From IMG/VR virus record IMGVR_UViG_3300047319_001872, positions 124,001-188,000 of that record: a stretch of DNA of 64,000 bases; one strand, written 5' to 3'. The stretch comes from a virus. Positions 16,467 through 26,494 of the stretch are shown piece by piece. Below the pieces are notes generated by a model. That model was not told the origin of the DNA. It saw only the letters and a program-made list of their open reading frames with translations, and ran no database searches. A program made the translations under genes and the position numbers. How positions within the stretch are numbered: the stretch's first letter is position 1; every line of letters begins with the position of its first letter.

Positions 16467-16553
16467 GGTGCGTAATCTTTTTCGGTAAGTAAAAAAATAT
16501 TGGATCGTATGAAGTGTATTTTTTCGCTTCGATCACTACCGACAGGGGTTAGC

Positions 16554-17345
16554 ATGAGTAACAGTAAGTACAACCGTAAACTGAAGACGCCCGATGCGCG
16601 CGACTTCGTTTACCAAGGCCACAAGACCTTCGGTGCGGCACTGATTCCGCCCAAAGCGGATTTGACGCCTTACCTCGGCCCGGTCTTCGATCAAGATCAA
16701 CTCGGTAGCTGCACGGCCAACGCCTGCGCAGGCGCGCTTGAATACGAACAAAACATCCAGAACAACAACGACAACGCGGTGCAACTCTCGCGGCTGTTCC
16801 TGTACTGGAACGAGCGCAATCTCGAAGGCACGGTGGATCAGGATTCGGGCGGTCAGATTCGGGACGTGGTGAAGGCCGCCGCGCAATACGGTGCGCCGCT
16901 CGAAACCACCTGGCCGTACAACGAACAAGCGTTTCGTCAGAAGCCCTCGCTCGAAGCGTACAACGAAGGCCTGCAACATCGGGCGCTGCAGTACGAAGCA
17001 GTACCGCAAGACCTGACGGCATTCAAGCACGTGCTGGCAGTGCTCAATCGACCGATTCTGATCGGCATCATCGTGTACGATTCGTTCGAAGCACCGCAGA
17101 CGATCGCCTCGGGTGTGGTACCGATGCCGGGTCCGACTGAAACCTGCCAAGGCGGTCACGCCGTGCTTGCGGTAGGTTACGACGACAGCAAGCAAGCGAT
17201 TCTGGTCCGCAACTCGTGGAACACGATCTACCCGCCTGCCTGGCCGGGTTCGAACGAGCGCGGTTCATTCTGGCTGCCGTACGAGTACCTCATGAATCCG
17301 CAGCTCGCTGAAGACTTCTGGGTGATCACTCAGGTCGCTGGTTAA
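16554..17345 (+). CDS. Papain-like (C1 family) cysteine protease
   Basis: 263 residues. ATG at 16554 follows AGGGGTTAGC; the frame is open from 16500 but lacks a better site. C1 peptidase hallmarks: oxyanion Gln47 and nucleophile Cys53 in DQDQLGSCTANA, His202 in GGHAVLAVGYDD and Asn220 in VRNSWN. No signal peptide and no obvious inhibitory pro-region, so the enzyme may act in the cytoplasm or as a virion component; targets unknown. One of only two plus-strand protein genes here, a single-gene unit with its own terminator at 17371. Confidence 0.93.
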   Translation: MSNSKYNRKLKTPDARDFVYQGHKTFGAALIPPKADLTPYLGPVFDQDQLGSCTANACAGALEYEQNIQNNNDNAVQLSRLFLYWNERNLEGTVDQDSGGQIRDVVKAAAQYGAPLETTWPYNEQAFRQKPSLEAYNEGLQHRALQYEAVPQDLTAFKHVLAVLNRPILIGIIVYDSFEAPQTIASGVVPMPGPTETCQGGHAVLAVGYDDSKQAILVRNSWNTIYPPAWPGSNERGSFWLPYEYLMNPQLAEDFWVITQVAG

Positions 17346-17873: not shown

Positions 17874-19172
17874 TTAGGCTGAGTGATTGGGATGCTGGCC
17901 GCCCGCTGCCGCGCGGTAACGCGGGTGTTGCCAACCAGCTTCCTTCGCGACACCGTGCACCTTGCCCAACACGCCTTCCGAGTACTCCGGAGCGACGACC
18001 AGACCTTCCAGCGCACGCCACTTGTTGTACAGATCGACCAAGAAGCGCTTGACCATATACCGGATCGCCATGTTGTGCTTATGCAGGTCCGTCTTCTCAG
18101 CGTGGCGAGGATCGTTCTTCAGGCGGTTCTTGTAATTGTTGTAGATCACCGCATACGGGCTCGGTTCGACGACTACCGTGTGACCCTTGGCGCGCAGATA
18201 GATGATGACAGCTTGGTCTTCGTCCATCTCCGCGTAGTCCTTCGGATCAAAGCCTTCTTCCTTGGCCAGTTCCAGTCGACGGACTGCGCCGACCTTCTTG
18301 CCATCCACGGTGGAGATGCCTGCGCGCAAGAACGAGGTACCCGCCACACCGATCAGCTTAGTCTTCAGGAACGGGTTGAAGGTGATCGAATCCCGCAACG
18401 CCTGCTCGCCCTCGCGATTGGTGTATTCCTTCTGCACCAAACAGAAGTCGCGCCGCGAACGACCAACTGCCTCGAAGGTCACCGGGTACTTGCCTTCGGC
18501 GAGCATCGGCAGATCGAAGTTCTTGCTGTCGGCGTACCAGGCGTCGATTTCTTGCCCGCGCACGGTCTGCTCACGACCCTTGTCGTCGACGTACTTGCCA
18601 ATATGCACCACGTCCAGCCCAGCGAGCTTCCACAGGCTTGACGGATACTCGGCCTTGGTGATGTCGATTTCGGAGACGATGATGCCCGCCAAAGCCGGAC
18701 CAATGCCGCGCACCCCGGACAAGAACTCTGTGTAGATCGGGATCTTCTTCAGAATCCGCTCCATGTCCTTGAAGTGGTGCTCTTCGTTCTTGAGCGTGTT
18801 CAGGTAGTTATCCACCAGCAGCAGTTCGCTGTAGTGCGTGATGAGCTCGTCGCCCTTGAATTTCTTCTCGGTGGGAAGCTTAGCGGTCATCGTTTCGATG
18901 GCTTCTGTGGTGTCGTCGTGGTGCTCGTCGATGATGCCGTCAGTGATACGACGATAGGACTTGCGCAACTGCTCGAGCAGGTTCTTTTCCTGCTTCTCGA
19001 GTTCGGCCTCGCTCATGCCGTCCTGACGCAGACCGAGCTTGGCTTTGAAGCTGGCGGTCACGCGGTTCCCCATCTGAATGCGCAGACCCTGCATGTCGTA
19101 GGCTGAGCGCACCATGGTGCGAATCACAGCGAGATTCGGGTTGTAGGTCGGGGCGATGATCGGGGTATTCAT
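17874..19172 (-). CDS. IS110-type transposase C-terminal-domain protein without a visible DEDD domain
   Basis: 432 residues; ATG at 19172 follows AAGGAAACCG and is preferred over 19193. Residues 150-190 (LSGVRGIGPALAGIIVSEI...YPSSLWKLAGLD) match the helix-hairpin-helix of the Transposase_20 domain of IS110/IS116/IS902 recombinases, and 265-390 (FNPFLKTKLIG; YKNRLKND; HKHNMAIRYMVKRFL) match the end of that domain. The N-terminal 145 residues are helical and charged and lack the usual IS110 opening of the RuvC-like DEDD domain. IS110 recombinases are directed by a structured bridge RNA. No insertion-sequence ends are seen, so it looks like a resident phage gene. Its start faces the repeat array at 19219, which runs the other way. 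Confidence 0.8.
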   Translation of the reverse strand: MNTPIIAPTYNPNLAVIRTMVRSAYDMQGLRIQMGNRVTASFKAKLGLRQDGMSEAELEKQEKNLLEQLRKSYRRITDGIIDEHHDDTTEAIETMTAKLPTEKKFKGDELITHYSELLLVDNYLNTLKNEEHHFKDMERILKKIPIYTEFLSGVRGIGPALAGIIVSEIDITKAEYPSSLWKLAGLDVVHIGKYVDDKGREQTVRGQEIDAWYADSKNFDLPMLAEGKYPVTFEAVGRSRRDFCLVQKEYTNREGEQALRDSITFNPFLKTKLIGVAGTSFLRAGISTVDGKKVGAVRRLELAKEEGFDPKDYAEMDEDQAVIIYLRAKGHTVVVEPSPYAVIYNNYKNRLKNDPRHAEKTDLHKHNMAIRYMVKRFLVDLYNKWRALEGLVVAPEYSEGVLGKVHGVAKEAGWQHPRYRAAAGGQHPNHSA

Positions 19173-19184
19173 GATTCGGTTTCC

Positions 19185-19212
19185 TTGTTTCAATTGTAAG
19201 TGGTTGTATACG
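19185..19212 (+). promoter_or_regulatory. Weak candidate promoter for the repeat-array transcript
   Basis: TTGTTT (19185-19190), 16 bases, TATACG (19207-19212) on the plus strand, just before the first repeat unit. It is a weak match to a sigma70-type promoter and the only candidate seen. Confidence 0.25.
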
Positions 19213-19218
19213 CGTTGG

Positions 19219-20458
19219 TGTTACACTAGCTGCTCTTGGGTGAGAGTCTACTGGTTTGATACACTACGTCGTCATGGATGAATACAGCTTACTGATGCAC
19301 TAGTTGTTCAGGGGTGACTGCGTTCTGTCGATCCACTATGCGAGATTGGGTGAATTTGCTACGATGATACACTGTGGGAATATGAGTGAATAAAGGTTGC
19401 TGATACATTTGACGCAATTGGGCGAATAAGACCGTTTGATACGCTGTTGTATGTTGGATGAAACTGTCCAACTGGTTCATTCTATCTGGATGGGTGCTTT
19501 TCTTACTTTGATACACTTTCTGGCTCTGGGTGACTGAAGTTTGGTGATGCACTAACCGGAATTGGGTGACTGTTTGACCGTGATGCGTTACTCTACACTG
19601 GGTGATGTTCCCCTCTGAGACACACTGCGAATTGATGGGGGTTTCAAGACTTTTGATACACTGAGCTATCTGGATGACTCATGCACGATGATACACTGAC
19701 CTCGCATGGGCGACAACAGTGCCTAGATACACTGATTACATCTGGTTGAATTACTTCACTTGGTACATTCTATCACAATGGGTGACTGGAGCAGATTGAT
19801 ACACTCGAGATCGTGGGTGACATTCGTCCTACCTTGATACGCTGTCTCTTTTTGGGAGACCTTCCCGAAGTGGCCCACTAAAATTTTTTGGGTGTCTGCG
19901 TATTTTTGATGCGGTCGATTACCTGGGTAACTTCCATGTTTTGACCCGTATTACTTAATTGGGTGACAACACCCTTTGACGCACTTCTCCTCCACGGGCG
20001 AAATTAAACCGATGGTACGATTTCGACTCTCTGGGGGACTATGTCAGTCTGACACACTAGACTACAATGGGGGACTTTTACTCATTGGTGCAATTATCCG
20101 GTTTGGGCGGCTAACAAAAACATGATGCATTTTCCGTCTCTCCTGGGTGTTTCAACGTGCCTGATGCGCAAGTGTAGTATGGGTGAATTCATCTTCTCTG
20201 GCACACATTTCCCCTATGGGTGTGATACCGATGTGATACATTCAACGGAGCTGGGTGAGTTTCTCCGAGCGATACGATAGTCTATGATGGGTGACTCGCC
20301 GCATTTGACCCACTGGCGTAGGGTGGATGGGGCTTGAGTTTTCTGATGCACTTCGACAACTGGGTGACTTGACTTCCTTGGTCAACTACGCGGGACTGGG
20401 TGACATCGATACTCTGATACACTAAATCGCTTGGGTGGCTGACTGTCCTTGATGCTTA
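19219..20458 (+). repeat. Array of about 35 degenerate 36-bp units with two conserved boxes
   Basis: Read by hand on the plus strand, each unit is TGATACACT (box A; commonly TGATGCACT, TGATACATT, TGATACGCT), about 9 variable bases, TGGGTGA (box B; variants TGGATGA, TGGGCGA, TGGTTGA), then about 11 variable bases. Box A starts include 19219, 19257, 19293, 19329, 19365, 19401, 19437, 19473, 19509, 19545 and 19581, and continue to 20415 and 20450. Of 34 steps, 20 are exactly 36 bp and the rest 35-39; box B mostly starts 18 bp after box A. The two variable parts differ in every unit. TGA in both boxes closes two plus-strand frames, and length changes break any minus-strand frame. Confidence 0.97.
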
Positions 20459-20462
20459 CTGC

Positions 20463-20492
20463 AGCCCGAGGCTTGCCTCGGGCTTTATGCCG
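20463..20492 (+). terminator. Plus-strand terminator after the repeat array
   Basis: AGCCCGAGGC/GCCTCGGGCT stem with a TT loop, followed on the plus strand by TTATGCCG. On the minus strand the hairpin is followed by GCAGTAAG with no T-run, so it serves plus-strand transcription. Confidence 0.8.
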
Positions 20493-22009: not shown

Positions 22010-22510
22010 TCAATTGCTCGCAAGGAGCAGCGGAATATGTTTGGGTGGAAGAGATGCTACATGCACAGTCTGCTGCTTAGCTGCAAGAATCGTCTTTACC
22101 ACTTGACGGACCTTGATGGCGTACACCGCACGCTCTTTGGGCGTGTTGGAATGATAGCCCCCGACGGCAGCCCAGGTGTTGCCGTACCGGTTCATCGAGC
22201 GACGCAGCAACCAGGCTGCGACGTATATGTTCTTGCAGCTCTGCATCAAGTCCCGGCGGCCGATCTTGTACCTCTTCAGCTCCGGGAGATGAATCGAATT
22301 GACCTGCATCAGGCCAAAATCAACCGAGCCATTCTTGTTACGGTTTAATGCCTTCGGGTCGTTCTGACTTTCCACCACCGCAATCCCACGCAGGATTAGC
22401 GGGTTGACTTTCTGATACGACGCCGCGTCGGTAAAGCAGTCAGCTTCGCAAACCCCGGAAAACAACACGGCTAAAGCAGTGAGGGCGGCTAAGATTGTTA
22501 TTCTAACCAT
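22010..22510 (-). CDS. Lytic transglycosylase (SLT/VirB1-like) with signal peptide
   Basis: 166 residues, ATG at 22510. Residues 1-23 form a signal peptide; the mature part carries the lysozyme-like SLT fold motifs: catalytic Glu47 in AVVESQNDP, FGLMQVN at 65-71 and AVGGYHS at about 115-121. Such enzymes cleave the MurNAc-GlcNAc bond of peptidoglycan; VirB1/IpgF relatives open the wall locally for secretion systems. In a phage it could serve host lysis or genome entry. It starts a unit with a promoter motif at 22570. Confidence 0.93.
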   Translation of the reverse strand: MVRITILAALTALAVLFSGVCEADCFTDAASYQKVNPLILRGIAVVESQNDPKALNRNKNGSVDFGLMQVNSIHLPELKRYKIGRRDLMQSCKNIYVAAWLLRRSMNRYGNTWAAVGGYHSNTPKERAVYAIKVRQVVKTILAAKQQTVHVASLPPKHIPLLLASN

Positions 22511-25624: not shown

Positions 25625-26494
25625 TTACACCCGCGCGGTTGTGATGCCCATCTGGCCTTGATACTTGCCCGCGCGCTTGGCGTAGTCGATCTCGCACGGC
25701 TCGCCTTGCAAGAACATGAACTGCGCGATGCCCATGTCCGCGTACACCTTCATCGGAAGCGGTGTCTGGTTAGCGATCTCGATGACCACCTGACCCTTGA
25801 AGCCGGGTTCGATCGGCGTCACGTTGATGGCGCAGCCCGCTCGCGCGTACGTCGACTTGCCCACACAGATCGCCACCACGTCGTTGGGCATGTTGAAGTA
25901 CTCGATCGTGTGGCCGAGCACGTAGCTGTTGGGCGGGATGACGACGTAGTCGCCTTCCATATCGACGTAGGCTTCATCCGGCATATTCAGCGGGTCGATC
26001 ACGGCGCCGTAGACGTTCGTGAAGACCTTGAACTTACGCCCAAGCCGCACGTCGTAGCCCATGCTGCTGGTGCCGTAGGAAATGATCTTCTGACCGGGAT
26101 TCGTCGCAATGGCGCCGTCCTTAGTACCGAAGCGCCAGGCTTGCTTGTCATCGTCCCAGTATTTGTCAGCAGTGCGAACCTGGCCCGGCACAAAGGGCGT
26201 GATCATGCGACCCCATTGGCCGTTTAGCTGACCAACCACCAAATCCTGATCCGGGTCCGGAACAAAACAGGCGCCGCCTGCGAAGCCTACGGCCTGCTCG
26301 GTCGTGAGCTCCTTCAGACCCCGCATGGCTTCTTCCATACCGCCTTTGCAGCGCGTGTCGTCGCGATAGCCGTCCCCGATGCAGTACAGTTCATCGCCGA
26401 CCAGCGCATAGAGCGTACGCCGCAGGTTGTTATCGACTCGCTGGTGGGTGGGCATCAGCGAGAGCTTTCTGATTGCGCGGTCATTCAAAATCAT
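25625..26494 (-). CDS. dcd: dCTP deaminase family protein with N-terminal insertion
   Basis: 289 residues, ATG at 26494 behind AAGGAAGATTGAC. Clear Dcd/DCD-DUT motifs: GKSTYARAG with Ser214 and Arg218, VVIEIANQ with catalytic Glu239, SMGYDVRLG at 144-152 and the C-terminal RAGKYQGQMGIT. The reaction is dCTP to dUTP (or directly to dUMP in bifunctional members). The usual enzyme is about 190 residues; here about 75 extra residues (roughly 20-93) lie between the first strand (MILNDRAI) and MITPF. It probably supplies dUTP/dTTP precursors during phage replication. Confidence 0.93.
   Translation of the reverse strand: MILNDRAIRKLSLMPTHQRVDNNLRRTLYALVGDELYCIGDGYRDDTRCKGGMEEAMRGLKELTTEQAVGFAGGACFVPDPDQDLVVGQLNGQWGRMITPFVPGQVRTADKYWDDDKQAWRFGTKDGAIATNPGQKIISYGTSSMGYDVRLGRKFKVFTNVYGAVIDPLNMPDEAYVDMEGDYVVIPPNSYVLGHTIEYFNMPNDVVAICVGKSTYARAGCAINVTPIEPGFKGQVVIEIANQTPLPMKVYADMGIAQFMFLQGEPCEIDYAKRAGKYQGQMGITTARV

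What the first reader, a model, noticed from the sequence alone, without database searches (positions are those of the whole stretch)
19219..20458. Array of about 35 units with two conserved boxes and unique 9- and 11-base spacers
The period is close to 36 bp (20 of 34 steps exact) over 1.24 kb. Each unit holds box A (TGATACACT) and, 18 bp later, box B (TGGGTGA), while the two intervening segments of about 9 and 11 bases differ in every unit. This is neither a simple tandem repeat (spacers are not repeated) nor a CRISPR array (no long identical repeats, spacers too short, no cas genes). TGA in both boxes argues against plus-strand coding. Conserved boxes around short variable segments suggest many protein-binding sites on RNA or DNA, or a set of short guide-like segments. 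I know of no described element with this layout.
Basis: seen in the sequence. Interest (0 to 1): 0.9.

Follow-up and report, generated by a model that had tools for sequence, protein, structure and literature searches.

The report
TIGR-Tas guide-RNA array in jumbo phage
A giant bacterial virus carries a long strip of 34 two-part RNA guides next to the gene for the protein that should load them (a TIGR-Tas system, first described in 2025), and comparison with sister viruses suggests that the guide letters are preserved by selection and that new guides appear mostly at one end.

Summary
This is a TIGR array (Tandem Interspaced Guide RNA; Faure et al. 2025, PMC12045711): 34 units of edge repeat TGATACACT, 9-nt spacer A, loop repeat TGGGTGACT, 9-nt spacer B, on the + strand. 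It ends in a truncated edge repeat and a terminator-like hairpin. The adjacent divergent gene (17874-19172, -) encodes a nuclease-less Tas protein (TasA class): NCBIfam TIGR_Tas_endo E=2e-28, and the ten best solved structures by fold are TasH and TasR. Of 27 viral relatives found, 25 hold such an array beside the gene. The record is a 313-kb phage related to Burkholderia phage FLC9.

What looks new is how the array changes across sister phages. Shared units are colinear. Promoter-proximal units are mostly replaced, distal units mostly kept. Shared spacers differ by 4-10%, while fourfold-degenerate sites of the tas gene differ by 37-38%. This points to purifying selection on guides and slow, 5'-polarised turnover. 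No target was found in its own, sister or FLC9 genomes, nor in the partial scans of phage, viral and bacterial collections. Targets, expression and processing are untested here. Verdict: a new, very long member of a known kind.

The parts
19219..20458 (+). TIGR array: 34 units of edge repeat (TGATACACT) - spacer A (usually 9 nt) - loop repeat (TGGGTGACT) - spacer B (usually 9 nt), ending in a truncated edge repeat TGATG
17874..19172 (-). tasA: 432-aa Tas protein, Nop/IS110-type RNA-binding domain, no N-terminal RuvC or HNH domain, two inserts of about 50 aa (about residues 188-236 and 284-337) relative to shorter relatives
19173..19218 (.). 46-bp leader between the divergent tasA start and the first unit; presumed to hold the divergent promoters; well conserved in sisters L004-L006
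   Evidence: no promoter identified by the consensus scan
20463..20484 (+). terminator-like hairpin (9-bp stem) just after the truncated edge repeat, followed by TTTAT; conserved in sisters
   Evidence: fails the strict U-run rule of the terminator scan

Best explanation
A TIGR-TasA system. The array is transcribed rightward as one precursor and cut within edge repeats into 34 tigRNAs of about 36 nt. Each is held by a TasA dimer through its edge and loop repeats (UG = box D, ACU = box C). Spacer A pairs with one DNA strand and spacer B with the other, so a unit addresses an 18-bp site reading spacerA + reverse complement of spacerB. Without a nuclease, TasA most likely bends and occupies the site to block its transcription or replication, probably on rival mobile elements or the host. 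Shown here: array, Tas gene, co-occurrence, repeat anatomy, guide conservation. Inferred from the 2025 paper: processing, pairing rules, DNA binding. Inferred without evidence here: the blocking effect and the identity of the targets. The confidence given is for membership and guide function; for the blocking role I would give about 0.5.
For: NCBIfam NF052498 TIGR_Tas_endo E=2e-28 (99.8 bits, cut-off 100; relative L011 115.8 bits). PDB sequence search: 9mty (TasR by its entry title) E=2e-21 and TasH E=5e-15 with the family profile. The ten best fold matches are all TasH or TasR entries; weak matches to box C/D Nop5 and Prp31 follow further down. 36-nt units with 9-nt spacers, both repeats TG...ACT, truncated edge repeat and hairpin at the end, as in PMC12045711. 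Arrays beside 25 of 27 viral Tas relatives, with repeats of the same TG...(C/T)T form whose inner positions differ between loci.
Against: No RNA data. Repeats are degenerate. No target found in own, sister or FLC9 genomes or in collection scans beyond chance, so the interference step has no direct support. The query misses the NCBIfam cut-off by 0.2 bits (probably because of its two inserts).
Confidence: 0.9

Rival explanations
1. A TIGR array, but the guides act inside the phage's own programme: TasA is a guided DNA-bending or regulatory protein on the phage genome or on transcripts, not a weapon.
For: TasA lacks a nuclease, so self-targeting would not be lethal; spacers are conserved across sister phages; spacer G+C tracks the G+C of the carrier locus (rho 0.81, p=0.0008, 13 loci).
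Against: No own-genome site with 0-1 mismatch for any unit; 2- and 3-mismatch counts equal decoy pairings. RNA targets were not searched.
Confidence: 0.12
2. A decoy or sponge: an array of binding sites for a DNA- or RNA-binding protein (or promoter-like elements), with neutral filler between the boxes.
For: Box B to box A spacing resembles a promoter spacing; boxes are the most conserved parts within one array.
Against: The filler is not neutral: shared spacers differ by 4-10% where fourfold sites of tas differ by 37-38% and free repeat positions by about 15-41%. The promoter scan finds no more than shuffles. Array and Tas gene travel together in distant viruses.
Confidence: 0.02
3. A degenerate or dying TIGR array with relaxed function.
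For: Repeats deviate by a mean of about 1.9-2.6 of 16 scored positions per unit, and spacer lengths vary from 8 to 12.
Against: Edge G2 and C6 and loop G2 and G6 are unchanged, bar one case, in 74 pairwise comparisons of shared units; the tas gene is under strong constraint (positions 1+2 differ 2%, fourfold sites 37-38%); leader and hairpin are conserved.
Confidence: 0.05

Closest known systems
TIGR-Tas, TasA class (e.g. FpTIGR, Flavonifractor plautii; Faure et al. 2025, PMC12045711)
   Same: 36-nt edge/spacer A/loop/spacer B units, 9-nt spacers, UG...box C repeats, truncated end repeat, hairpin, nuclease-less Nop-domain protein beside the array
   Different: 34-45 units in the closest arrays instead of the usual 5-15; degenerate repeats; TasA with two inserts; array divergent from the gene; carrier is a phage of about 313 kb
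TasR (PDB 9mty) and TasH (PDB 9vzx, 9w02-04, 21kl)
   Same: Nop-domain core matched by sequence and fold
   Different: They carry RuvC or HNH nuclease domains; this protein has none. Box C here is ACT rather than the CCA reported for TasR
IS110 transposase with bridge RNA
   Same: related RNA-binding domain (Transposase_20 weakly matched; IS110 model E=6e-4, far below cut-off)
   Different: no DEDD catalytic domain, no bridge RNA; an array of many guides instead
CRISPR array
   Same: array of repeats and unique spacers; promoter-proximal turnover resembles leader-end acquisition
   Different: two short repeats, split 9-nt spacers, no cas family among the neighbours scanned
Box C/D snoRNP (Nop5, Prp31)
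   Same: Nop fold, box C/D-like guides (weak fold matches)
   Different: no fibrillarin or L7Ae seen among the neighbours scanned

Membership tests
TIGR-Tas | array of two alternating 8-12-nt repeats separated by spacers of about 9 nt, unit of about 36 nt | tested here: met
TIGR-Tas | adjacent gene for a Tas (Nop-domain) protein | tested here: met
   gene starts 47 bp from the array
TIGR-Tas | edge and loop repeats share box D (UG) and a covarying box C | tested here: met
   TG...ACT in both here; consensus pairs of the same form in other loci. Covariation itself was judged by eye, not by a statistic
TIGR-Tas | array begins and ends with truncated edge repeats, then a rho-independent terminator | tested here: met
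   truncated TGATG, then a 9-bp hairpin and TTTAT; the strict terminator scan does not call it
TIGR-Tas | processing into 36-nt tigRNAs bound by Tas | not testable with these tools
   needs RNA sequencing and pull-down
TIGR-Tas | two spacers address opposite strands of one DNA site | not testable with these tools
   binding not testable; composite-site searches found no target
TasA subclass | no RuvC or HNH domain | tested here: met
   helical Nop-type start at residue 12 in the model; no nuclease match in Pfam or PHROGs
TasA with ParB partner (TasParB) | operon with a ParB-like gene | tested here: not met
   no ParB match among the neighbours scanned
CRISPR-Cas | single repeat of about 25-36 nt with spacers of similar size and cas genes | tested here: not met
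   repeats and spacers are 9 nt; no cas family among the neighbours scanned
IS110 transposon | DEDD domain plus IS110-level match | tested here: not met
   NF033542 19 bits against cut-off 140

The most novel reading that the evidence does not exclude
TIGR arrays in this jumbo-phage lineage are slowly renewed, heritable guide libraries: new dual-spacer units enter mainly at the promoter-proximal end, as in CRISPR, yet without any adaptation genes seen nearby, and kept guides are held by purifying selection against conserved targets. If so, the guides face stable targets rather than a fast arms race, and these sister arrays are a natural time series for how TIGR arrays grow.
Probability: 0.5. 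Interest if true: 0.75.

Novelty: new member of a known kind. Interest (0 to 1): 0.55.

Why it matters
The discovery paper names open questions: natural targets, how arrays grow, and what nuclease-less TasA does. A family of phages of about 310 kb with related arrays of 34, 34, 40 and 45 units (plus one of 24 unrelated units) makes the second question testable by comparison. Evidence that guides are conserved while free repeat positions drift constrains answers to the first and third.

Tried and rejected
Self-targets, sister-phage targets and FLC9 targets: none with 0-1 mismatch in the spacerA + rc(spacerB) order, and counts at 2-3 mismatches equal decoys. In one search a few 1-mismatch hits appeared only in other spacer orders (for L005 and L006 units); not pursued. 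IMG/VR scans for composite sites of units 10, 16, 12 and 2 gave 2, 1, 3 and 0 contigs. A genome-collection scan for unit 16 gave 46 hits scattered over many phyla; most have a 1-base gap and would fit a common coding motif (GAD-x-VI, my reading, not tested), and four proteobacterial hits lie in coding frames reading YHKDLLP or YHKNLLP. Exact 18-mers of 11 units in the phage collection: none, with a positive control found. Unit 10 with 1 mismatch in 399 genomes of the order of a Nitrosospira genome: 3 genomes with a hit, no more than the reversed control. Promoter array: scan no better than shuffles. Rfam: nothing. Tas in the phage collection by tblastn: no match.

Full report
Observation. The array is real. 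Parsing the + strand with two 9-nt weight matrices gives 34 units plus a truncated end at 19219-20458; 20 of 34 steps are exactly 36 bp. The score is 712, against at most 19 for dinucleotide shuffles and 101 when matrices are refitted to each shuffle. The unit is edge TGATACACT, spacer A 9 nt, loop TGGGTGACT, spacer B 9 nt. Most spacers are 9 nt, a minority 8-12.

Identity. The gene starting 47 bp to the left on the other strand (17874-19172) encodes a 432-aa protein. Pfam sees only a weak Transposase_20 trace and PHROGs calls it 'transposase', but NCBIfam places it in TIGR_Tas_endo, E=2e-28, 0.2 bits under the cut-off. Profile search against solved structures returns 9mty and TasH, and the AlphaFold model (pLDDT 80) matches ten TasH and TasR chains before anything else. 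TM-scores by query length are modest (0.31-0.40), so fold similarity is a family-level statement. No RuvC or HNH domain precedes the Nop-type core: TasA class. Faure et al. 2025 (PMC12045711) describe arrays of this layout, with truncated edge repeats and a terminator, processed into 36-nt guides whose two spacers pair with opposite DNA strands. From their 8-nt 3' overhangs I derive the target order spacerA + rc(spacerB); the paper's figures could not be seen.

Family. 27 viral contigs encode relatives; 25 hold an array beside the gene that the window's own matrices detect, always on the strand opposite to tas, either divergent or convergent. Several of these contigs are near-copies of each other, so 25 is not 25 independent cases. 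With refitted matrices, edge and loop begin with TG and end in (C/T)T in the loci with a clear array; L027 did not give a clear array. The record is a 313-kb phage with about 77% DNA identity to parts of Burkholderia phage FLC9, which has no match to the Tas protein or the box pattern.

How the array changes. L004 (tas DNA 98.9% identical) has the same 34 units. L005 and L006 (tas DNA about 90% identical) have 40 and 45 units; 21 and 24 are recognisably shared with the window, and 21 and 23 of these are colinear. L007 (75%) shares none. Shared units are scarce at the promoter-proximal end: in the first 11 units of the window, L005 and L006, 5, 4 and 3 are shared, and in the rest 21 of 23, 24 of 29 and 27 of 31 (Fisher p = 0.007, 0.008, 0.0005). 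The cut at 11 was chosen after looking; rank correlations agree (p = 0.05, 0.0002, 0.005); the three arrays are not independent. The first unit itself is shared by the window and L005, so the pattern is not strict. That the 5' end is promoter-proximal assumes transcription from the leader toward the hairpin.

Constraint on guides. To limit selection bias, units were matched on one spacer and differences counted in the other: 4-8% in spacer B, 6-10% in spacer A, against 10-12% in the repeats of the same units; the spacer-repeat contrast is significant in two of six comparisons (p = 0.005 and 0.015). Fourfold sites differ by 37-38% in tas and 14-17% in the gene on the other side (only 42-43 sites). 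Free repeat positions (edge 3 and 5, loop 5 and 7) differ by about 15-41%, the core box bases almost never. So kept spacers look constrained, unless array segments were exchanged recently between these phages, which I did not test. Spacer G+C follows carrier G+C (rho 0.81).

Targets. None found (details in Tried and rejected). A conserved-guide reading predicts conserved targets; the units and collections tested here are too few to exclude host or rival elements. Function beyond guided DNA binding is therefore inference.

Verdict. Already described kind of system, new and unusually long member, with comparative evidence on array growth and guide constraint that I did not find in the papers available here (subscription journals and preprints are mostly not held).

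Noticed in passing
window 16500-17345 (+): Papain-family cysteine protease (Peptidase_C1, E=2e-13) encoded close to tasA, on the opposite strand from it.
   Followed up: no
window 22010-22510 (-) and 25625-26494 (-): Transglycosylase SLT domain protein and a dCTP deaminase-like protein.
   Followed up: no
L006, units 37-39 of the array: A stretch of about 100 bp inside the sister array does not parse as units, perhaps a short insertion into the array.
   Followed up: no
L006 units 22 and 23; units 15 and 41: Two pairs of units with nearly the same spacer A but a different spacer B (tcactgcc/ctcactgcc; gagctatc/gtagctatc), a possible trace of how units arise by partial copying.
   Followed up: partly
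window 17874-19172, about residues 188-236 and 284-337: Two inserts of about 50 aa present in this protein and in L005-L009 but absent from most shorter relatives; function unknown.
   Followed up: partly
spacers of window, L005, L006, L007: Spacer positions are not free: spacer A rarely ends in G, spacer B often ends in T, position 5 is poor in A (heterogeneity p = 6e-5 and 4e-4).
   Followed up: partly
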